Assembly: GCA_033439765.1 (NCBI GenBank)
Contig: JAULSN010000009.1
Coordinates: 1,984,001 to 2,048,000, forward strand
Length of the DNA: 64,000 nucleotides
Direction: 5' to 3'
DNA from: Lasiosphaeria ovina
Taxonomy: Eukaryota; Ascomycota; Sordariomycetes; Sordariales; Lasiosphaeriaceae
The notes under the pieces were generated by a model. That model saw only the letters and a program-made list of their open reading frames with translations. It had not been told where the DNA came from and ran no database searches. A program made the position numbers and the translations under genes. Of the stretch, positions 30,158-61,229 are shown one piece after another (the stretch's first letter is position 1; each line of letters begins with the position of its first letter).

Positions 30158-33100
30158 ATGGGATGGCCGAACCGGACAGGCCGGGCCCTCGTGGCCTTGG
30201 CCGGGCTCTTGGGCGCGGTCAACGCCCAGGGCTACTTTGGCACAGTGCAGAACGAGATCGCAAGTTGTGGAAGTGACAACTTCATCTATCTAGGATGCTA
30301 TGCAGACTTTCTCAACCAAGCAGGAACAAACTTCTTTCGGTTCAACCCGCAGGCGTACAATTCTGGCGATCCTTCGAGGAGTTTCCCAGACTGGGATCCC
30401 GGCAGCAATTACAACAACACCATGTCACCTGTCGGCTGCGCCCGGGTCTGCAGGGGATTTGGGTTCAAGTATGCGGCAGTCAGGGACAACAACTGCAACT
30501 GCGGTCTCCAGCTGCCAGCGGCTCTCGTGCCGGGCCTTGACACTTTTTGCAACGTGCCCTGCGCCGGCAACTCCCTCCTGACTTGTGGCGGCGGCAACTA
30601 TGCCCAAGTTTATGTCGACCCGACGTTTGCCAGCCCCCTCTATACGCCCATCACAACTCTGAACGCGACTTTGTCCAACTATTACAAGTATCTTGGCTGC
30701 TACTCAATCTCGAATGGCTTCCCAACCCAAGATACTCGAGCCCAGCAGACTTTTACCAGCATTGACGACTGCTTCTCAACCTGCGCCGCCCTGGGATATC
30801 CGCTGGTTTTTGGCTCACCTCAGGGGTTCGTGATGCAGTCCGCCGCCCCTGGTGCTGACCTCGTCTAGTTAGCTAACTCGACGTGATTATCAGCACGAAC
30901 TCGGTCAAGTGTACTTGCGGTACATCGTTTGGCTATCCCTCATATCGAGTGCATCCTGAGCTGCTACCCACCCCGGGAGACTGCACCAATGTTTGCAATA
31001 CTCCCAGCGGGTGAGATCTTGCTCCTAGTCCCTCCCGGTGAGGCCGAAGAAGACAATGACCATTGCTAACATGATGACAGAGCCGGAGGGGATTGCGACC
31101 CAACTACGACACGATGCTGCGGGACGTCTAACTACTATCCCGTCTACATCAACCCGGAGCTTCAAGGCTGCTACACGCCCCAGATCCCCGGCTACAAGAG
31201 CACCAGCACACAGGTATTATACGAATGCGATGATATCGACAGCAGCTATTTTGGACCGCCACACAGTCTGCCCCTCGGAGTGTACTCCTTGAGCCAAACC
31301 ATCAACGCCGTGCCAGCCCTGGTCCACCCTCTCCATGTAGTGGGCGGCGCAAGAGATTACTACATATATGGTTGCTATCCCCAGCAGGCTCTGAACCAAG
31401 ACGGAGCCACGGGAGTCTTCGCCCCTGCTCTATCAGTCCAAGTCCCAGGCTTTACCCCGGCGACGCTCGAGAACTGTGCAGCGCAATGCAACACGAGGAA
31501 CTATGACGCTTTCGGCATGATCAATGGCGTGTGAGTATCTATATCACCCCGTCACGGGCAGCGCGTTTTGCTTACAATGTCGGTGAAGTGACTGCTATTG
31601 CTCCAACCAAATCGTTACCACGACAAACCCCGATTCCATGTCGACATGCCGGATCAGATGCGTGGATAGCCCAGGAACCGCATGTGGCTCAGCAACCGGC
31701 CCAGTTGTCTACGCCGTAAACAAGCTGGGAGTGTACCCATCGTATACAAACACCTTTGCTGTGCCATACCCGACTTATTCGTGCATCAGAAAATGTGAGT
31801 ACTCTTGTTACCCCCCCCCCCCCCCGAGCTCCAGGAGGACAGGAGTGACTATTCGCTATTGAAACTAAAAGCTTCGTATAGCCACATCAACCAGCACGAC
31901 CACTACGACCACCACGACCACTTCCACATCCAGAACCACAACTGCCACTACAAGTACTACAACCTCTACAAGTAGTACTACCACTACTGGGACTGCCACA
32001 ACAAGCACAACAACCACGGGCACCTCAACCAGTAGTACCACAACTACAGGAACTGCAACAACTAGTACGACGACTACCGGCACGTCCACGACTAGCACGA
32101 CAACTACAGGCACCTCAACGAGCAGTACCACGACAACTGGGACCGACACGACAAGCGTTACAACTACCGGCACTTCAACGAGTAGCACTACAACTACCGG
32201 CACCTCAACGAGTAGCACTACAACAACTGGGACTTCGACAACCAGCACTACAACTACTGGCACGTCTACAACTAGTACTACGACTACAGGCACCTCAACC
32301 AGCAGCACCACAACCACTGGGACTTCAACAACGAGTACCACAACGAGCACTACGACTACTGGGACCGAGACGACAAGCACTACAACTACAGGCACCTCAA
32401 CATCAAGTACGACGACTACCGGGACCTCAACAACGAGTACCACCACCACTGGAACTTCCACAACTAGCACAACAACCACTGGCACCTCAACAAGCAGCAC
32501 TACAACTACAGGCACCTCAACCAGCAGTACCACAACAACTGGCACGTCAACAACCAGTACAACAACTACTGGTACTTCAACGAGCAGCACAACTACTACA
32601 ACCACTAGCACCTCGACGAGTAGCACTACAACCACGGGAACTTCAACAACTAGTACAACGACTACCGGAACCTCTACAACAAGCACTACGACCACAGGGA
32701 CTTCAAGAAGCAGCACAACAACTACTGACACATCAACGACGAGCACCACAACCACAGAGACTTCAACAAGCAGCACTACAACGACGGGAACTTCTACAAC
32801 TAGTACCACGACTAGCACTACTACGAGCACCACAACTACTGGGACGTCCACTAGTAGCACTACAACAACTGGGACGGAAACAACTAGCACTACTACTACG
32901 GGGACGTCCACAACGAGTACCACAACTAGCACCACAACCACGGGGACTTCAACAAGCAGCACTACAACAACTGGCACGGAAACAACTAGTACTACCACCA
33001 CCGGGACCTCCACTACAAGCACCACGACCACCGGGACATCTACATCAAGTACTACAACTACTGGGACGTCCACAACGAGTACCACAACGAGTACCACAAC

Positions 33101-34628
33101 TAGCACTACAAGTACGTCTACAACAAGCACCACAACCACTGGGACGTCTACTAGTAGTACTACAACAACTGGGACGTCCACAACTAGCACGACAACCACC
33201 GGGACATCCACATCAAGCACAACAACAACTGGGACTGCAACGACAAGCACTACTACTACCGGGACCCAGACTACTAGCACGACAACTACCACTTCTGGCA
33301 CACAAACCACCAGCACCACAACTACAACGACTGGGACTCAGACAACGAGTACGACAACTACCGGAACCCAGACCACCAGCACCACAACTACCACTTCTAG
33401 CACACAAACCACCAGTACCACAGCCACAACGACTGGAACTCAGACTACGAGTACAACAACTACTGGCACTCAGACTACTAGCACCACAACCACGACTTCC
33501 GGCACGGAGACTACTAGCACCACGACGACTGGGACCAAGACTACTAGTACCACAACGAGCACCACAACTACCGGGACCTCAACCACGAGCACCACGACTA
33601 GCACCACGACTACCGGGACCTCAAGCACTACCACTACCGGGACCTCAACGACGAGTACCACAACTACTGGGACTAGGACCACTAGTACCACGACGAGTAC
33701 TACGACAACTGGGACCCAGACTACTAGTACAACAACTACCGGGACTTCGACGACGAGCACAACGACTACCGGAACCTCAAGTACCACCACAACCGGGACC
33801 CAGACAACGAGTACCACTACGACCGCGACCTCAACTACAAGCACCACAACAACTGGAACCCAGACAACGAGCACAACGACTACCGGGACTTCAACTACTA
33901 GCACCACCACAACCGGGACCTCAAGCACCACCACAACTGGGACTTCAACGACGACGACGACAACAACTAGCACTTCCCTGACCGCCACCACCTCGACATC
34001 GCGGACGACAACAACGTCCACAAGCAGTACTACCACAACGGGAACATCCACGACAAGTACCACAACCACCGGGACCTCGAGGACGACGACGACGTCCACA
34101 AGCACTAGTCTGACCACTACCACGTCCACAACCTCCACCACGTCTACAACAAGCGACATCACCACCACGTACTCGACCATCATCGACGATGAAACGAGCA
34201 CACGGTACCACTACCTCGACATCACATCGACGACGACAGACATTGAGACGCGCACCAAGCACACGCGGCCGCCTTACAGCACGGGCAGCCATCACCCGCA
34301 CCACCCGCACCACCCGCCACACCACGGCGGCGGGGGCGGCGGGCACGGCGCGCGCACGCTCCGCCTCCCGCCCGACGTGTACCCGTTCCCCGCGACGACG
34401 CCCGCCGGCGAGCTGTGCGTGACCGTGTCTGCGGCGTGGATCCCTGGAGAGACGACACTGGCTTCGCGGCCGCGGCACGGCGACGACGGCGGCGAGTGGG
34501 GATCGCCTCTGCACCACGATGGCGGTGATGGTGGACACGGGATCTGGTGGTGGAAGCGATGGACTGTCAGTGGGGAAAAGAGCGGCAAGGAAAAGGAGAA
34601 CAACACCAACAACGACTACAAGACGTGA
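30158..34628 (+). CDS. secreted three-WSC-domain protein with giant Thr-rich stalk
   Basis: Five exons: 30158-30825, 30894-31010, 31081-31530, 31589-31794, 31882-34628, giving 1395 residues; phases close (2, 2, 2, 1). A signal peptide (ALVALAGLLGAVNAQG) precedes three Cys-rich WSC domains, about residues 40-160 (NFIYLGCYADF, CGLQLPAAL, CGGGNYAQVY), 180-295 (YYKYLGCYSI, CTCGTSFGYP, CNTPSG) and 355-475 (YYIYGCYPQQ, DCYCSNQIV, CVDSPGTACG). WSC domains bind wall glycans or act as wall-stress sensors. Residues 482-1243 are an uninterrupted Thr/Ser/Gly stalk of TTTTGTSTTS-type repeats, open in one frame from 31884; it is surely heavily O-mannosylated. The tail carries HHPHHPHHPPHH, a Gly/His stretch, and GIWWWKRW, then ends KEKENNTNNDYKT with no membrane helix or GPI signal. 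The first intron (donor gttcgt at 30826) is the weakest boundary. The opposite strand is also open for 484 and 243 Val-rich codons, a shadow of the repeat. Confidence 0.88.
31884..34170 (+). repeat. 2.3-kb degenerate ACN/AGN tandem repeat coding the Thr-rich stalk
   Basis: Thr (acn), Ser (agy, tcn) and Gly (ggn) codons follow a loose period of about ten codons (four Thr, Gly, Thr, Ser/Asp/Ala/Gln/Glu, two Thr, Ser). Synonymous codons are well mixed, so the array is old or kept at protein level rather than freshly expanded. Residue seven varies between Ser, Ala, Asp, Glu, Gln, Arg and Lys along the array; Gln predominates at about 33260-33480. Confidence 0.92.
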
Positions 34629-39218: not shown

Positions 39219-39693
39219 TCATTTCCTTGCGCCGACCGGCGAGCGAGTAGGTGCGCGAGTAGGTTTCTTCTGGTTTGGGCGAGCAGCCGAGCGCACAGCT
39301 TTGCTAGGAGGGGCAAGGGCCGGCGGTTTCGGTTCGGCCGAGCGAGCAGTCAGGCGAGCCGACCGTCGCGGTTCGGGGCGAGCAGCCAGACGAGCCGATC
39401 GCCGCGGCCCGGCCACAGCGACGGCCCGCTGACTTGGCTCTAGAGTGGTGGCGGCGGTGATGGCGGCAGTGGTGTTGCGAATCTTGGCGGGCCGCTCTTG
39501 TTCCTCCTCGTCGTCGGCGCTGGGATCCCGGTCGCGTTTCCTGCTCGCCGGGGGTTTGGGCGCACGAATGTCCGACGACGGGGACGGCGTTGGCGTCATG
39601 TGCGCTTGTTGATGTTGTTGTCCCGATGGGGTCGGGTCCACCGTGTCCCACGGGCTCCACTTACCATCGTCTTCGTCGTCGTCGTCGTCGTCT

Positions 39694-39747
<54 letters not shown>

Positions 39748-40138
39748 GTTTGGTTGACCATGTCGATCCACTCCTGCAACTTCCTCTCACGTTCAGCCCA
39801 CACCTCCTGCGGCACATGGCCGATTCGATATTTGCTAACAACTTCCTCGCCCAGCATCTTTATATGTACCTCCCTTATTTCAATAGCACGTTCCAGTTTT
39901 TTGACGAGATGTTGGATGAATTGGGCATGGTCTCTTCTTTCGTGGAGCGTGGACGGCGGTCCAGTGACAGGGCCTGGGGTTTTGAAGTCCCACGAGAACT
40001 GCACCAAGCCAAGGCTTCATGTCAATGACGTGCCATGTAATAAGCCAACAATGATTGTTTTGGTAAGGAAAGGCTTACATTTTGGTTCGGGTTGGAAATG
40101 GGTACAACAGGGGCCGGCGCGGGAGCTGAGGCATCCAT
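39219..40138 (-). CDS. acidic coiled-coil protein with RSARLAAR-type basic repeats, unknown function
   Basis: Exons 40138-40079 and 39998-39219 (80-base intron, phase 0) give 279 residues. The start was set at the ATG at 40138 because the main frame has no own ATG and the 20-codon exon MDASAPAP.. joins in phase through gtaagc and ggtgcag. Residues 38-100 are a charged helical segment (HAQFIQHLVKKLERAIEIR, PQEVWAERERKLQEWIDMV). Residues 105-131 are 25 Asp and 2 Glu. The last 90 residues are basic, with repeated PRRSARLAAR and EPRRSARLTARS and further Arg/Lys/Pro, reminiscent of DNA- or chromatin-binding tails. No catalytic domain was recognised. It lies 353 bases downstream of a kinase gene on the same strand. 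Confidence 0.7.
39669..39748 (-). repeat. (GTC)n trinucleotide tract coding poly-Asp/Glu
   Basis: Near-perfect gtc repeat with two ttc interruptions (Glu) in the coding exon of the acidic protein; the reading frame keeps it as Asp/Glu. Confidence 0.92.
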
Positions 40139-53150: not shown

Positions 53151-54170
53151 TCACCTTATCTCAGCGCCTTCACCTGTGAGTTCCTCCAGCCCCAAGACGT
53201 AGCAATCCCCTAAAAACATTATGGAACCGTCCTCTCGCCTTCGGAGTGCAGCCGCGTTCGAGCAACCGGCCAGGATATACACAAGGCCCCCCTCCTCGGT
53301 AAAATCAGGTGCTAGCACAAGCCGTCCATCTTGTAGCAGCCCCAGCGTCTTCGAAGCTACGATATAATCTACTGCAGTGGCCAGCTCCTCGACTTCGGCG
53401 AAGCGCCTCTCCTCAGCTACCTGGGGCCAATCTTCCACTGTCCAATCACATGGTTCATTCGGGAGCCAGGGCCTCGTCTTGGGGAACCGGAGCCTCCAGG
53501 CAACGGCACAGAGCCATGCGTCGAGGAACCGTTTCCACAGAGAGTCGTGGCTGGGGATCCGCCTGAGGAGTGGTTCCAGAAGCATTGCCACCTCGGCACC
53601 TCGACGAAACTCCAACCACTGGCGGCCGCGGAACGGCGGCGTCGTGTTGGGTGACGGGCGACACAGCTTTGTCTTGTCTTCGCCACTGTATGGACGTCCT
53701 AGCTCAAGGAGGTGGTCGATCTCCAGGGCGACCACTTCCAAGGACCCCAGCGGGTAGCCTTTGATGGTAAGCTCGAGTTTTGAGGGAGAGAATTCGTAGT
53801 GAGGCGTCTCAGGTTGGCCAACGCAGCCTACGAACTTGTCCCACGGCTGTGATTGCAGAATGATGTCCAAGCATCCACCTGTAGCACGGGCGTAGTTTTC
53901 GACCGTAGAGCAATAAAGCCCCTCGACGCTGTCATTGTAAACCGGGCGGATTTGAGCGCTGAACTCGAGACTGCTTCTTGGCGGTTCCGCGGAAGCTCTC
54001 CCTGATGAGTTAACAATCGCCTGCTTCCAAAAAGCACTTATCTATAACTAACCTGCATCCTTGTCTGCAACAACGTCCAACAGCTTCGATTATACGGCCT
54101 TGGATGGTGTCGCACGAGATCGGCGGGTCCGTGCCTCGAAACCTCTACCGCCGTGTAGGGCAGAGAATGC
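53151..54170 (-). pseudogene. HET-6-like heterokaryon-incompatibility protein, C-terminal remnant
   Basis: The long frame (about 250 codons, 53990-53151) shows the usual C-terminal half of fungal HET-6-type proteins: AFWKQAIVNSSG, a variable middle with tryptophan-rich segments, then DGRLVLAPDFTEEGGLVYIL, LAGCSNAAALRR and SIMFLGDCYVLGLEELTGEG, the family's closing strands. There is no ATG at the beginning of this frame. Further upstream the fragment ISCDTIQGRIIEAVG (near 54060-54110) also resembles the family but lies in another frame, with possible splice sites between. The N-terminal HET domain (the part that triggers cell death) is absent from the window. This is most likely a truncated gene, less likely the tail of a gene with unresolved short introns. 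Confidence 0.6.
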
Positions 54171-54841: not shown

Positions 54842-57800
54842 TTAGGAAGGATGTGATCTAAGCAGCCGCGCAACGGCCTCGTGCCCGTTCGCAGCCGCCC
54901 TCGACAGCGGCGTCTGCCCATCTCTATCCTCGGCGTCGACGGCGGCGCCCTTCTCGAGGAGCAGCCGCGCAACGGCCTCGTGCCCTTTCGTAGCCGCCAA
55001 CAACAGCGGCGTCCGCCTATCTATGTCCTCGGCGTCGACGGCGGCGCCCTTCTCGAGGAGCAGCCGCGTAACGGCCTCGTGCCCGTTCGCAGCCGCCCAC
55101 CATAGCGGCGTCCGCCTACTACTATCCTCGGCGTCGACGGCGGCGCCCTTCTCGAGGAGCAGCCGCGCAACGGCCTCGTGCCCTTTCGTAGCCGCCAACA
55201 ACAGCGGCGTCCGCCTATCTATGTCCTCGGCGTCGACGGCGGCGCCCTTCTCGAGGAGCAGCCGCGTAACGGCCTCGTGCCCGTTCGCAGCCGCCCACCA
55301 TAGCGGCGTCCGCCTACCACTATCCTCGGCGTCGACGGCGGCGCCCTTCTCGAGGAGCAGCCGCGTAACGGCCTCGTGTCCGTTCGTAGCCGCCCACGAC
55401 AGTGGCGTCCGCCTACTAATACTACCCTCGGCGTCGGCGGCGGCGCCCTTCTCGAGGAGCAGCCGCGTAACGGCCTCGTGTCCGTTCGTAGCCGCCCTCG
55501 ACAGCGGCGTCTGCCCATCGCTACCCTCGGCGTCGACGGCGGCGCCCTTCTCGAGGAGCAGCCGCGCAACGGCCTCATGCCCGTCCGCAGCCGCCCACCA
55601 TAGCGGCGTCCGCCTACTACTATCCTCGGCGTCGACGGCGGCGCCCTTCTCGAGGAGCAGCCGCGCAACGGCCTCATGCCCGTTCGCAGCCGCCCACCAT
55701 AGCGGCGTCCGCCTACTACTATCCTCGGCGTCGACGGCGGCGCCCTTCTCGAGGAGCAGCCGCGCAACGGCCTCGTGCCCTTTCGTAGCCGCCAACAACA
55801 GCGGCGTCCGCCTATATCTGTCCTCGGCGTCGACGGCGGCGCCCTTCTCGAGGAGCAGCCGCGTAACGGCCTCGTGCCCGTTCGCAGCCGCCCACGACAG
55901 TGGCGTCCGCCTACCACTATCCTCGGCGTCGACGGCGGCGCCCTTCTCGAGGAGCAGCCGCGTAACGGCCTCGTGTCCGTTCGTAGCCGCCCTCGACAGT
56001 GGCGTCTGCTTACTAATACTATCCTCGGCGTCGGCGGCGGCGCCCTTCTCGAGGAGCAGCCGCGTAACGGCCTCGTGTCCGTTCGTAGCCGCCCTCGACA
56101 GCGGCGTCTGCCCATCGCTACCCTCGGCGTCGACGGCGGCGCCCTTCTCGAGGAGCAGCCGCGCAACGGCCTCATGCCCGTCCGCAGCCGCCCACCATAG
56201 CGGCGTCCGCCTACTACTATCCTCGGCGTCGACGGCGGCGCCTTTCTCGAGGAGCAGCCGCGTAACGGCCTCGTGCCCGTTCGCAGCCGCCCTCGACAGT
56301 GGCGTCCGCCTACCACTATCCTCGGCGTCGACGGCGGCGCCCTTCTCGAGGAGCAGCCGCGTAACGGCCTCGTGCCCGTGAGCAGCCGCCCTCGACAGCG
56401 GCGTCTGTTTATCTATGTCCTCGGCGTCGACGGCGGCGCCCTTCTCGAGGAGCAGCCGCGTAACGGCCTCGTGCCCGTTCGTAGCCGCCCTCGACAGTGG
56501 CGTCTTACTAATACTATCCTCGGCGTCGGCGGCGGCGCCCTTCTCGAGGAGCAGCCGCGTAACGGCCTCGTGTCCGTTCGTAGCCGCCCTCGACAGCGGC
56601 GTCTGCCCATCGCTACCCTCGGCGTCGACGGCGGCGCCCTTCTCGAGGAGCAGCCGCGCAACGGCCTCATGCCCGTTCGCAGCCGCCCACCATAGCGGCG
56701 TCCGCCTACTACTATCCTCGGCGTCGACGGCGGCGCCCTTCTCGAGGAGCAGCCGCGCAACGGCCTCGTGCCCGTTCGTAGCCGCCAACGACAGCGGCGT
56801 CCGCCTATATCTGGCCTCGGCGTCGAAGGCGGCGCCCTTCTCGAGGAGCAGCCGCGCAACGGCCTCGTGCCCGTTCGCAGCCGCCCACCATAGCGGCGTC
56901 CGCCTACCACTATCCTCGGCGTCGACGGCGGCGCCCTTCTCGAGGAGCAGCCGCGTAACGGCCTCGTGCCCCTTTTCGGCGGCCCACCATAGCGGCGTCC
57001 GGCCATCCTTATCCTTTAAGTCAATATTGGATAAGGCTGAAGGGGGCAGGAGGGCTACCAATGTTTCGTCCCCTTGCTCCACGATGTAAGAAAGAATATC
57101 TCTTCGTCGAGGATAAATAAATTCACGCCCGAGCTTGATCCGTTTATTCTTGTCTTCACAATAGCTCTTGAATGTGCGATGAAGCGGAGATACTGAAGGC
57201 TGGATTCCCATCAGGGCCATTAGAAGTGCCCGCACTGTTTCATCACTGTCGGTGGCCACTGCTGCAAAAAATGGTGGCCCATACCGCTCCTCTCCTACCT
57301 CTAAGCAGGTTAGGTTGGAGGGATAGCTTGTGATTAGGTTTCCCACGTTATGCTCTGCCAGTATGTATAAAAGGCTCGCATTTGAGGTGTGTCGACGTAT
57401 GTTGTGTTTTTCGAATAGGTTATCGAGATCGATCCACACGGGGAGCTGAAAGTCTCGGAGAAACTCCTTCTGGTTGATGCCGCTCCCCGCTGCTACATCT
57501 GCGTGAAATAGGACATTCCTGACAGCATACTCGAGAAAGGGAAACTTCTGAACTGCCGACCGGCAGAGCTCCACGGCCTCCTGCGATGACGCTTTGGGGA
57601 GAGGATTGGTGAGATTCAGAGAAGCAACAGCCTTGGCGTTAATGTGCGCGAAGCAACACTGTTTCAGTCGTTCATGACTTTCGCCACGGAAGTCTTTAAA
57701 TTCTGGCCAGATCCCCTTCAGTCCATCTCCTTTCAGGAGAAAATCCCTCACGGACTCGTGGATAAATTGCACAGTCGGATGTTTGGACTTGGTAATTTCG

Positions 57801-59990
57801 GCAAGCCCTTTGGAGGCGTTGAGGATGAATCTTCTGATAACAATTGCTGTGATCTCCTCGGGATCCCACTCAAATAGGGCCCCAGGTTCGATGCTGGAGA
57901 GGACGGCAAAATACAACTCTTCTGGCTTTAGTGGCTGTCGTGCGAAGAAAACCCACTGAATACACAGAAGCAGCTCGCCTTTGTTGTGCTGGTCACGCGT
58001 CAAAATTTCGCGGAATAGCTCGTGTAGGTCTCTAGGGATGTCCCGGAGTCTTTTCTGGAGCGCATGAATGCGGCCGCCGTCATACTCTTTGTTCAGAATC
58101 TCCACTACCAGAACAACCCACATGAACACCCCAGCTGCCTTTTCTCGAAGATCATGACGAATCGCTTCTGCGAGCTTGCTGTGTCCAATATTCAGCTCGC
58201 TGTCCAGATAGTCGATTATGTCCTTCACATGCTCTTCTTGCCCTTCGAGGGCAAATTCCAGGCCTTTCGCAATAGTAATGTGCGGGTAGTGGCGGCTCGA
58301 AAACAAGACTTGAAATCGAATCCCAGCTTGCACGGCCATTTCGCCAACATGCTCAAAAAACGATAGCATATCTCGAATCTGATGCTCGTCGCACTCATCT
58401 AGAGCGTCAATAAAGCACGCTAACGATGACTTTCCAAGGCCTAGCACAGCTTGTTCAAAGAGCGCCTTAAGCGATTCGACGGTCCATTTGAGGCGTTCAC
58501 CATTCCACGATACCAGCCCGAGAGTGTCAAACACATCCTGAAGCGCTGGATACCGCTCAAGGAGCTGTAGTAGCAGTGATCGGTACATCCCAGTCGTAGA
58601 CTTCTCCAGCTCGTCGCCTCGTGCGTTGAAGAAGAAGGAGATGATGGTCGTTTCCTTCATCTTTCTCCGCGCACTAGCCACGGCGAACTTCATCAGTGTT
58701 GACTTCCCTGCCCCAGGTTTCCCCTTGATCCACAAAAAGCCGTGGTGCTCGCCGAGCTTGGTGGGGTCGAGCCAGTCGAGGTACTCGGACTTTTGTAGTA
58801 GCCATGTGCATGTCTTGAGGTGTGCTTTCTTGATGGTCAATTGGCGAGCGTCGATCTGGTCAAATCTCAAAGATTCCAACAAAGTGCGTTTCTGACTTTC
58901 AACCAACATCAACGTCTTCCCTTCCGTCGATTGCTTTACCGCCGTGGTTGCTATCCTGCGCAGAGCAGCAGCAACCTTTCTGTACTCGACATCATCGAGT
59001 CCCGCAAAGCGACACATTTCCATGTGGTCCCGCCCAATATGCTCCATTGTCTCGGCTGCAATGTTGAGGCAGGATGAGGTATCATGAACAACCTGTGAAG
59101 CATGATTAGCAAAGTGTGGGAAATATACCTTGTCGCAGATAAAATACCTTTTGTCCAGAGAGGAGCCCAACACCAACCTCTTCTTGAAAGGAGTGTATTA
59201 TCCAATTCTGGCCTTGAGCCATGGGGCCGAATCTATCCCTTAACTCTTTGAGGATATCGGAAGACGGCAATAGAGCCTGAACGATTTGCTCGTTCGCAGA
59301 GACGCCAACGGCATTGGCTAGCCGTTCAACAATGTGATGGCGAAAGCCGCGGGGATCGGCACCAGCGTGCGGCGTGCCAAAGAATATTATGCCGGTCGTG
59401 GACTCGAATATACGACCAAGATGAGCCTGGTGACAATCCCTCGACAGCAGAAGCATCTTTTTGACAATGATCCCTCCAAGGCTGTGCGCCACAAACAACA
59501 ACGGCCTCGTAGACTCGGTCCGACGTTCAGACTCCAGGGCAACTAAAAAATCCTGAGCGATACCTGAGACGGTGTTGCTAAGCACAGGAGGCCCACCCGG
59601 ATATCCGATATGCGTGTTGTAGCCGTATGTGAAGATTCGTGCGTAAGGGACCGTTGTTGGGACCAAATCGCGTGGCCAGTAGACACCTCTATCGTGACGG
59701 GACGCAGGAAATAGGCCGAGTCTCCGATATTTGGAAGGGGGTTCGGAGGATTCGTCAGCAGCCGAGCTGTCGCTGTAGCGTCCGGCATTTGCCTTCTTGG
59801 AAGTCCATGTGCGTTCGGGATGGCCGGTAAATCCGTGTATGAAGACAATGCTTCTCGGTCAGTAGGCTGACTTGAAGCACTAGTGAGACCAAGAAGCCTA
59901 CTCAAGATGCGGCTCGTGTGGTTCGAAAAGAACCGTCATCGCGGTCGGGGGGACATGCCTCGGCAAAGGTTGTGCCGCCGTCTCAGCCAT
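54842..59990 (-). CDS. fungal NLR-like protein: alpha/beta hydrolase - NACHT - 22 ankyrin repeats
   Basis: Exons 59990-59902, 59850-59148 and 59092-54842 give 1680 residues; intron 2 (55 bases) has a gctaat branch site. The start ATG at 59990 joins in phase to DIVFIHGFTGHPERTWT. Domain 1 (30-265) is a SesB/PGAP1-like hydrolase: IVFIHGFTGHP, the nucleophile elbow VAHSLGGIIVKK, IIFFGTPHAGAD. A linker with MEHIGRDHMEMCRF is usual before NACHT in fungal NLRs. NACHT: Walker A GKPGAGKST (388-396), Walker B CFIDALDECD (about 490-499), and a winged-helix region to about 950. Residues 958-1680 are 21 full and one partial ankyrin repeats of 33-34 residues, nearly identical (core TPLxxAAxxGHEAVxRLLLE). 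Such STAND proteins work in fungal allorecognition and innate immunity by ligand-driven oligomerisation; here the hydrolase would be the effector. Walker motifs are intact and no frameshift is visible. Confidence 0.93.
54845..57013 (-). repeat. 99-bp ankyrin-coding tandem array with higher-order structure
   Basis: 2169 bases: 19 units of 99, two units of 102 and a final partial unit. Blocks of about 60 bases are identical or nearly so between units; differences cluster in the codons just before and after TPL. A three-unit block (SSRR-WWAA, SDGQ-SRAA, SIS-TPL) appears three times (units 4-6, 9-11, 15-17), showing segmental duplication. The antisense strand is open over more than 450 codons only because the unit length is a multiple of three. 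Confidence 0.95.
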
Positions 59991-60571
59991 CCTGTCGAAC
60001 AAAGATGAATGCACCGAACTCTATTTTGCAGTTTGAAGTACGACGCCTGACCTTTCAGGAGGATGCGGCTAAGGCTCGTCGCAATGGCCTCGGTTTGTGT
60101 CGTGGTGGAATTCAATAATGACTCGCTCGTCGTCGGCCGCAAATCGCTGCGACGTAAAGCGCTCAGGGCCGCCTCAACAAGAGAGAGAAGATCTGTCTGT
60201 CTGAACTGAACCGGAGGGGAAGCAATTTCAGGACAAAACGGCGGAGAAGGAAGGTACCGCCAGCCTCACGAGCTTTGATTGGGCACCGGACACATTACAG
60301 ACTCCAGCACAGCCTCGCCCCCGCCCACACGATCAAGCCCTCACAGCAGCGGTCATGTTAGGCTTGCAATGAGCCGCCGCAGTCTAGACATGTCCAAGGT
60401 AAAGAGGGTTAGGTATTCTGACAGACAAAAACTTTATACATATAATATATAAAACTGTCACCAGCTGAGCGAAGTTAAAACAAGGGTAAAAAGGGAATGC
60501 GGTCCAAAGCGGAGGCGGGGCGGCGGGGCGGCGGGGCAGGTACTTAAGTGTACACCTACTCCAGGGTAATA

Positions 60572-60743
60572 CAACTCTCCCGGGGTTTAAAACCTTAGCA
60601 GAGTGACTTTTAGTAATGAATTTGCAGGGGATATAAGCCATAAACGCAGGGGATTGGAAGTCACTTTTCTAGCAGGTTCACACCAAAAAGTCACGTGGTG
60701 GCTTGGTTGTATCGCACTAAGGTTTTAAACCTCGGGGGATGTG
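60572..60743 (+). mobile_element. MITE copy A (TA-flanked, 172 bp)
   Basis: Terminal inverted repeats: left caactctcccggggtttaaa at 60572, right complement of cacatcccccgaggtttaaa ending at 60743. TA dinucleotides stand on both sides (60570-60571, 60744-60745), the target duplication of Tc1/mariner-type elements. It has no coding capacity. The inner part (aggggatataagcc, aagtcacttttctagcaggtt, accaaaaagtcacgtggtgg) matches copy B in reverse orientation. Confidence 0.85.
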
Positions 60744-60802
60744 TAGAAGGGCCAGGTGGGGGAGGGAGTCTTTCCCGGAGCGTGGAGCACCGTGTTCTCG
60801 AT

Positions 60803-61229
60803 TACCTTCCATATCCGCGAAAGGTAAGAATAAGACTGGAACTTGGAAGTACACCTCCGCCATGGTTTGAAAGCTTAGTGCGATACATTCAAGCCACCAC
60901 GTGACTTTTTGGTGAGAACCTGCTAGAAAAGTGACTTCAAATCTCCTGTATTTCAGGCTTATATCCCCTGTTAAAATCCCCTGCCAAAGTCACCGCACTA
61001 AGCTTTCAAACCCCGGCGGAGGTGTAGTGTAGTGTATAAAGGAATGCTGTGGACTTCGACCTGGAAGTCATAAGCGCTAATGTCCCGTTTCCCCAATCGA
61101 GATACCCCGTTTCCCCACGGCCAGCTGTGGGGTTTCCAAGGCCCGGCAAACGGCGCTTGCGGGGAAATGGTGCAAAAGCCGGACCTTGCCGAGCGGTTTC
61201 TAGGCCTGACTGCTGCATCCCAATTTACA
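60803..61229 (+). repeat. dispersed repeat R, copy 2, interrupted by MITE B
   Basis: Starts taccttccatatccgcgaaaggtaagaa at 60803-60830 and resumes after the MITE with cgacctggaagtcat and aatgtcccgtttcccc through to ctgcatcccaatttaca at 61212-61229. The interruption proves that the repeat was in place before the MITE arrived. Confidence 0.85.
60852..61024 (-). mobile_element. MITE copy B (TA-flanked, 173 bp), reverse orientation to copy A
   Basis: TIRs: cacctccgccatggtttgaa.. at the left and the complement of cacctccgccggggtttgaa.. at the right, continuing through agcttagtgcg; about 31 bases with two mismatches. Flanked by TA at 60850-60851 and 61025-61026. The reverse complement aligns along its whole length to copy A, with the same inner blocks. 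No transposase is encoded, so movement would depend on an enzyme from elsewhere in the genome. Confidence 0.88.

What the first reader, a model, noticed from the sequence alone, without database searches (positions are those of the whole stretch)
54842..59990. NLR-type protein with hydrolase effector and almost identical ankyrin repeats
The gene codes for an alpha/beta hydrolase (SesB-like), a NACHT ATPase with intact Walker A and B, and 22 ankyrin repeats that barely differ. Very high repeat identity is known for fungal NLRs such as Podospora HET-E/HET-D (WD40 repeats), where it drives rapid change of recognition specificity. Here the sensor is ankyrin and the effector a predicted lipase/esterase. 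The whole frame is open, so it is probably a live allorecognition or innate-immunity receptor.
Basis: partly seen in the sequence, partly recalled or inferred. Interest (0 to 1): 0.88.

Follow-up and report, generated by a model that had tools for sequence, protein, structure and literature searches.

The report
Fungal immune-type receptor with ankyrin array
This fungal gene encodes a predicted intracellular alarm protein, made of a lipase-like end, an ATP-driven switch and 22 very similar ankyrin repeats that differ mainly where they could touch a target; it is a well-built example of a receptor class already described in fungi, not a new kind of system.

Summary
The gene is real and as described: minus strand, exons 59990-59902, 59850-59148 and 59092-54842, 1680 aa. 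It has an alpha/beta-hydrolase with a candidate Ser-Glu-His set, a NACHT-type ATPase with intact Walker motifs and 22 ankyrin units. A Lasiosphaeria miniovina ortholog (91%) aligns without gaps over 942 residues, across both introns. The genome is probably Lasiosphaeria ovina, reported to carry 162 NLRs. The repeats are similar rather than almost identical: mean 82% protein identity, 16 distinct of 21 full units. They differ mainly in the hairpin and inner helix, as do five other arrays of this genome and 30 arrays of other proteins. SesB-like/NACHT/ankyrin NLRs, highly conserved ankyrin repeats, repeat-number change and selection on the concave face were published in 2014. Most likely it is an intracellular non-self or danger sensor whose array diversifies by intragenic exchange and whose hydrolase triggers cell death. 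Expression, ligand, enzyme activity and strain variation are untested. New member of a known kind, with the longest and most homogeneous array among the 128 hydrolase-bearing proteins examined.

The parts
59902..59990 (-). Exon 1, start codon at 59990
   Evidence: gapless match to P0001 from residue 1
59851..59901 (-). Intron 1 (51 nt). The acceptor AG could also lie 3 nt earlier (48 nt), giving HLES instead of HLD
   Evidence: One search lists both acceptors; P0001 has HLD, which favours 51 nt
59148..59850 (-). Exon 2, most of the alpha/beta-hydrolase domain
59093..59147 (-). Intron 2 (55 nt, GT..AG)
   Evidence: gapless match of P0001 across the junction
54842..59092 (-). Exon 3: end of the hydrolase, NACHT-type ATPase, linker, ankyrin array, stop codon
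58925..59933 (-). Alpha/beta-hydrolase (SesB-like) domain, residues about 20-320, interrupted by introns 1 and 2
59481..59483 (-). Candidate nucleophile Ser153 (AHSLGG), at the turn between a strand and a helix
   Evidence: S in 55 of 55 rows of A2 and in the window's protein; model strand 147-152, helix 154-168
59181..59183 (-). Candidate acid Glu253 (Asp268 is the alternative)
   Evidence: E253 in 55 of 55 rows, D268 in 53 of 55; end of model strand 247-253
59024..59026 (-). Candidate catalytic His287
   Evidence: H in 55 of 55 rows and in the window's protein; after model strand 278-283
58205..58867 (-). NACHT-type (NPHP3_N) ATPase, residues about 340-560; Walker A at 58700-58723, Walker B at 58391-58417
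54845..57013 (-). 22-unit ankyrin array: 99-bp units, two followed by 3 extra bases, last unit 28 residues
60570..61027 (.). MITE-like inverted-repeat element about 0.6 kb upstream of the start codon; neighbour, not part of the gene
   Evidence: 121-nt arms 88% complementary plus shorter pairs

Best explanation
A cytosolic fungal NLR (STAND) receptor. The 22-repeat ankyrin solenoid binds a protein ligand on its concave face (inferred). Binding releases the NACHT ATPase to exchange nucleotide and oligomerise (inferred from the class), and the clustered N-terminal hydrolases then cleave a lipid or ester and cause local cell death or a stress response (inferred). Specificity lies in a handful of variable residues per unit: hairpin 1-5, inner helix 9, 10, 13 and turn 14. 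The array grows, shrinks and reshuffles by exchange among its own units while the scaffold stays homogeneous (intragenic homogenisation and face-concentrated replacement changes are shown; strain-to-strain turnover is inferred).
Against: No expression, ligand or enzyme data. The five face columns are partly post hoc for this array: of seven DARPin randomised positions as I recall them (2, 3, 5, 13, 14, 26, 33), the last two are invariant here and I dropped them; with all seven dN/dS is 1.34 and the variability test gives p 0.007. Counts of replacement against silent changes, face versus rest, are not significant by Fisher test in the window array (p 0.14) or in any of the five others (p 0.08-0.77); L010 has face pN/pS of 0.51, and in L011 the rest of the unit has a ratio as high as the face (1.69 vs 1.76). 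Foldseek ranks ORC and Cdc6 ATPases alongside CED-4, so it shows an AAA-type ATPase rather than an NLR in particular. No strain comparison was possible. The hydrolase misses every Pfam cut-off.
Confidence: 0.72

Rival explanations
1. The gene is specifically a het (vegetative incompatibility) gene: allelic arrays recognise variants of a polymorphic partner protein in conspecific fusion cells.
For: High internal repeat conservation marks HET-D and HET-E, and a gene of the same architecture is up-regulated during incompatibility in Podospora.
Against: [quoted passage not shown] No polymorphic partner was sought here.
Confidence: 0.12
2. The array is a decaying or neutrally expanding tandem repeat in a gene that is no longer under recognition selection; repeat identity simply reflects recent slippage or amplification.
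For: Silent variation is also present (pS 0.11 over all columns, overall dN/dS 0.87). Fisher tests on change counts are not significant. Among the closest long matches elsewhere in the genome (C23, 68%), several frames are broken by TAG.
Against: No stop or frameshift in 22 units, replacement changes concentrated on one face in 6 of 6 arrays by permutation (p 0.0001-0.033), and NACHT and hydrolase residues intact.
Confidence: 0.1
3. The hydrolase end is a catalytically dead scaffold or signalling adaptor, not an enzyme.
For: Sequence is far from any characterised enzyme: no Pfam model over cut-off, and the 60 rows shown of 102 PDB sequence matches are EGFR or erbB-2 kinases, best E 3.6e-4, which I take as chance.
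Against: Ser153, Glu253 and His287 are invariant in 55 of 55 relatives and Ser153 sits at a nucleophile-elbow position in the model.
Confidence: 0.1

Closest known systems
SesB-like/NACHT/ANK fungal NLRs (2014 survey PMC4986451; Podospora Pa_7_10370 in PMC3689799)
   Same: Same three-part architecture; for fungal NLRs the survey describes ankyrin repeats with high internal conservation, repeat-number change and variable sites on the concave face
   Different: The ankyrin examples it analysed in detail have PNP_UDP effectors (Pa_2_8180, Pa_3_8560, and Chaetomium globosum gi116208038 with 21 repeats); here the effector is a hydrolase and there are 22 repeats
L. miniovina B0T26DRAFT_848594 (P0001)
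   Same: 91% identical over 942 residues, same splice pattern implied
   Different: Its record is marked partial and stops just before the array, so the arrays cannot be compared
Podospora HNWD receptors HET-D, HET-E, HET-R
   Same: NACHT receptor, very similar repeats with a few hypervariable codons, concerted evolution
   Different: WD40 repeats and a HET effector; phylogeny shows exchange between paralogs as well as within genes, whereas here all nearest units are within the gene among nine arrays compared
PLP-1 of Neurospora crassa (patatin/NB-ARC/TPR)
   Same: NLR with a lipid-hydrolase effector; cell death depends on the patatin domain and on the ATP-binding motif (PMC12881547, passage)
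   Different: Patatin, NB-ARC and TPR, so unrelated parts in each position

Membership tests
Fungal NLR (tripartite STAND receptor) | Effector, NACHT or NB-ARC ATPase, superstructure-forming repeats, in this order | tested here: met
   PF24883 strong, PF05729 below its cut-off on the piece scanned and just over it with neighbours
Fungal NLR (tripartite STAND receptor) | Ligand-triggered oligomerisation and signalling | not testable with these tools
   Needs biochemistry
SesB-like effector domain | Alpha/beta-hydrolase fold with Ser-acid-His | tested here: met
SesB-like effector domain | Match to a published SesB profile or to Nectria SesB | not tested
   No such profile was used; the nearest Pfam, DUF676, is below cut-off
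NLR with high internal conservation (HIC) repeats, 2014 definition | Over 85% internal identity over at least 100 residues | tested here: met
   Mean identity to the consensus 86.4% over 21 units, about 690 residues; but the pairwise mean is 81.6%, and T-reks, the program of that definition, was not run
NLR with HIC repeats | Repeat-number polymorphism among strains | not testable with these tools
   One genome only; the ortholog's record ends before the array
NLR with HIC repeats | Diversifying selection at concave-face codons | tested here: inconclusive
   pN/pS 2.0 on the face and permutation p 0.0001, but columns partly post hoc and Fisher p 0.14; no likelihood test run
HNWD (HET-D/E/R) family | HET effector and WD40 repeats | tested here: not met
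   Hydrolase effector and ankyrin repeats
het (vegetative incompatibility) gene | Allelic differences cause incompatibility | not testable with these tools
   Needs fusion tests

The most novel reading that the evidence does not exclude
The 99-bp unit is split in two by function at the DNA level: a nearly invariant 51-bp half (47 of 51 columns fixed, silent sites included) that serves as the tract for intragenic crossing-over, and a 48-bp half (22 of 48 fixed) that carries recognition residues together with linked silent variation. The gene would then be a self-contained natural DARPin-like library that shuffles whole paratope modules and seems to take no units from paralogs. The half-and-half silent pattern is strong here (6 of 7 against 1 of 15 amino-acid-invariant codons, p 6e-4) but is not a general rule: the five other arrays of the genome over 80% identical total 13 of 80 against 20 of 85 columns, and a sixth, L009, has 2 of 16 against 4 of 17 (summed, which counts columns slightly differently).
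Probability: 0.13. Interest if true: 0.55.

Novelty: new member of a known kind. Interest (0 to 1): 0.35.

Why it matters
The class is known; its ligands and the biochemistry of SesB-like effectors mostly are not (from recall, beyond the passages cited). This locus is a good test object: a long homogeneous ankyrin array with an apparently intact hydrolase, in what is probably the species reported to hold the most NLRs of 82 Sordariales taxa (162 in L. ovina; PMC12258605, passage). It would let one ask directly whether ankyrin NLRs change specificity by reshuffling units within a gene, and whether a SesB-like hydrolase kills.

Tried and rejected
Searching PDB by sequence with the hydrolase: 102 matches at E up to 10; the 60 shown are all EGFR or erbB-2 kinases (best E 3.6e-4), which I treat as chance. 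Pfam gave no hydrolase family over cut-off. RIP as the source of unit variation: the dinucleotide indices look RIP-like in the array (TpA/ApT 1.86, (CpA+TpG)/(ApC+GpT) 0.64), but the array is 70% GC and repeats one unit, so they say little; hydrolase and NACHT are not RIP-like. GC-biased conversion: the array has 85% GC at fourfold sites (measured on 15 units in L001) against 56% upstream, but of five arrays compared, this one included, only three show a clear rise, so I do not claim it. A general split of silent variation between unit halves was rejected, since the other arrays do not show it. Linked partner gene: the frame 53151-53870 has no Pfam match; no other search for a partner was made.

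Limits. Structure was predicted for the ortholog P0001 (942 aa, 55 rows; mean pLDDT 80.4, pTM 0.54), because the spliced window protein is not readable from one frame. The array model was made without an alignment, is of low confidence (mean pLDDT 68.6) and was used only for the helix pattern. No coordinates were available, so triad geometry and surface exposure were not measured. The script stopped with an error at its seventh array (L009); six arrays are reported, and the planned site-by-site list was not printed. Two array detectors gave different counts for hydrolase-bearing proteins with arrays of at least 75% identity, the window's included: 2 (stricter) and 3. The protein sets are the best 120 rows each of 2235, 237 and 2200 hits, 315 different proteins in all plus the window's, so ranks are not population estimates, and the 30 arrays are not all independent. 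Several arrays of the own genome are cut by the ends of the loci held, so their unit counts are lower bounds.
Full report
WHAT IS THERE. The gene lies on the minus strand, window 54842-59990. Splicing a 51-nt and a 55-nt intron joins exons of 89, 703 and 4251 nt into one frame of 1680 aa. An alternative acceptor 3 nt earlier at intron 1 is equally open, but L. miniovina P0001 has the sequence that the 51-nt intron predicts. P0001 aligns without a gap over 942 of 942 residues at 91%, across both junctions, which supports the three-exon model better than any open frame does. Its record is marked partial and ends just before the array; an assembly break at near-identical repeats is a likely reason (inferred; short-read assemblies of such repeats are reported as unreliable in PMC12222747, passages).

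WHERE IT COMES FROM. Contig C1 of the window's genome (9,163,860 bases) has the same length as the longest contig listed for a Lasiosphaeria ovina protein (P0137), and a paralog at 54% identity lies on it. I therefore take the genome to be L. ovina. A study of 82 Sordariales taxa reports 10 to 162 NLRs per genome, with 162 in L. ovina, and lists sesB-like first among N-terminal domains, T-NACHT as the commonest ATPase type and ankyrin first among repeats (PMC12258605, passages).

THE ARRAY. 22 units; 21 are full 33-mers, and units 10 and 16 are followed by one extra residue. Pairwise identity is 81.6% aa (70-100%) and 89.8% nt; 16 of 21 are distinct. Numbering the T of TPL as position 6, columns with high variability are 1-5, 9, 10, 13, 14 and 20; of the other columns only 30 varies at the protein level. 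In the low-confidence array model, helix 1 covers unit positions 7-13 and helix 2 positions 17-25, so most variable residues lie in the hairpin loop, the first helix and the turn after it. That is the region mapped for Pa_3_8560 in the 2014 survey (inner helices and hairpin loop of the concave surface; PMC4986451, section 17 read in full). The 21 units hold 14 distinct combinations at positions 2, 3, 5, 9, 10, 13 and 14.

HOW IT EVOLVES. On columns 2, 3, 5, 13, 14 pN/pS is 2.0, against 0.53 elsewhere, and their mean pN exceeds nearly all random sets of five columns (p 0.0001). These are DARPin randomised positions as I recall them, less 26 and 33, which I dropped after seeing that they are invariant here; with all seven, dN/dS is 1.34 and the variability test gives p 0.007. 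In five other arrays of the same genome, where the set was fixed beforehand, the permutation p runs from 0.0003 to 0.033. Four of these five have face pN/pS above 1; L010 has 0.51, L011 has nearly the same ratio off the face, and Fisher tests of change counts are not significant in any of the six. Column variability correlates with the mean of 30 other arrays (Spearman 0.74, p 9e-7) and shares 9 of the 10 most variable columns. Over nine arrays of the genome, 82 of 88 units, and 21 of 21 here, have their nearest neighbour in the same gene. Similarity peaks at lag 6 (p 0.0018; 0.031 after allowing for eleven lags) and 19 of 66 site pairs show all four combinations, which suggests block duplication plus exchange within units, or recurrent mutation. 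The closest paralog (L002, 64% over residues 312-949) has units only 42% alike, so the homogeneous state is not fixed in the family.

HOW UNUSUAL. Among 316 proteins (315 hits plus the window's), 128 carry a hydrolase motif in the first 400 residues; of these, 19 have an array of six or more units and 3 reach 75% mean identity: this one (81.6%, 21 units), P0005 (79%, 9) and P0006 (77%, 16). The set is a truncated hit list, and assemblies may collapse such arrays. Without the hydrolase condition, more homogeneous arrays exist (P0065, 89%, 14 units) and a longer one too (P0002, 25 units). Within its own genome it is not the most homogeneous (L013 83.8%, L011 83.6%), but it has the most units of those I could read, some of which are cut by locus ends.

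TWO LOCAL ODDITIES. First, codons 17-33 of the unit are almost frozen at silent sites too: among amino-acid-invariant codons, 6 of 7 in the first half vary silently but 1 of 15 in the second (p 6e-4). The other arrays do not share this. Second, the array is 70% GC against 50% in the NACHT part. Both fit recent amplification from one GC-rich founder with selection keeping old diversity in the recognition half; neither proves it.

MECHANISM. Shown: intact architecture, conserved putative active site, intragenic homogenisation, face-biased replacement variation. Inferred from the class: nucleotide-dependent oligomerisation and ligand sensing. Inferred from fold and precedent: lipid or ester hydrolysis leading to cell death, as for the patatin NLR PLP-1 (PMC12881547, passage). 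A 2022 study says that a cell-death role for the SesB-like domain is reported 'more indirectly' (PMC9815663, passage). A Podospora NLR of the same architecture, Pa_7_10370, rises about threefold during incompatibility (PMC3689799, passage).

VERDICT. The class, the repeat behaviour and the selection on the concave face were in print by 2014 (PMC4986451, abstract, passages and section 17). I found no paper on this individual gene in the searches, which cover open-licence PMC papers only; only named Lasiosphaeria. It is a new member of a known kind.

Noticed in passing
window 60570-61027: MITE-like element: 121-nt inverted arms 88% complementary, with further shorter inverted pairs at its ends.
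   Followed up: no
window 54861-57015: Array GC 70% (fourfold sites 85%, on 15 units) against about 50% (56%) just upstream in the same gene; other arrays show it only in part.
   Followed up: partly
window 54861-57015, codons 17-33 of each unit: Second half of the 99-bp unit nearly free of silent variation, first half rich in it; not seen in the other arrays.
   Followed up: partly
window 31938-33948: Long imperfect repeat (periods 15, 30, 90) with AT skew 0.5 that would read Thr/Ser-rich, mucin-like, on the plus strand (by eye); of frames of 300 aa or more with a start codon, one search lists only a minus-strand one there (31865-33319).
   Followed up: no
window 39667-39747: (TCG)27, read on the minus strand as a poly-Asp run inside the frame 39219-40007.
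   Followed up: no
window 53151-53870, minus strand: 239-aa frame that by eye resembles the C-terminal half of HET-domain proteins (recalled); no Pfam match.
   Followed up: partly
G000:C23:5144487-5152704: Ankyrin units among the closest to this array (up to 68%); several of the matches contain TAG codons, so perhaps a decayed array.
   Followed up: no
G000:C12:546272-546871 and G000:C19:17666-18265; G000:C10:39990-41000 and G000:C23:5550693-5551703: NLR and ankyrin matches that appear twice on different contigs with the same scores, so perhaps duplicated contigs or recent copies.
   Followed up: no
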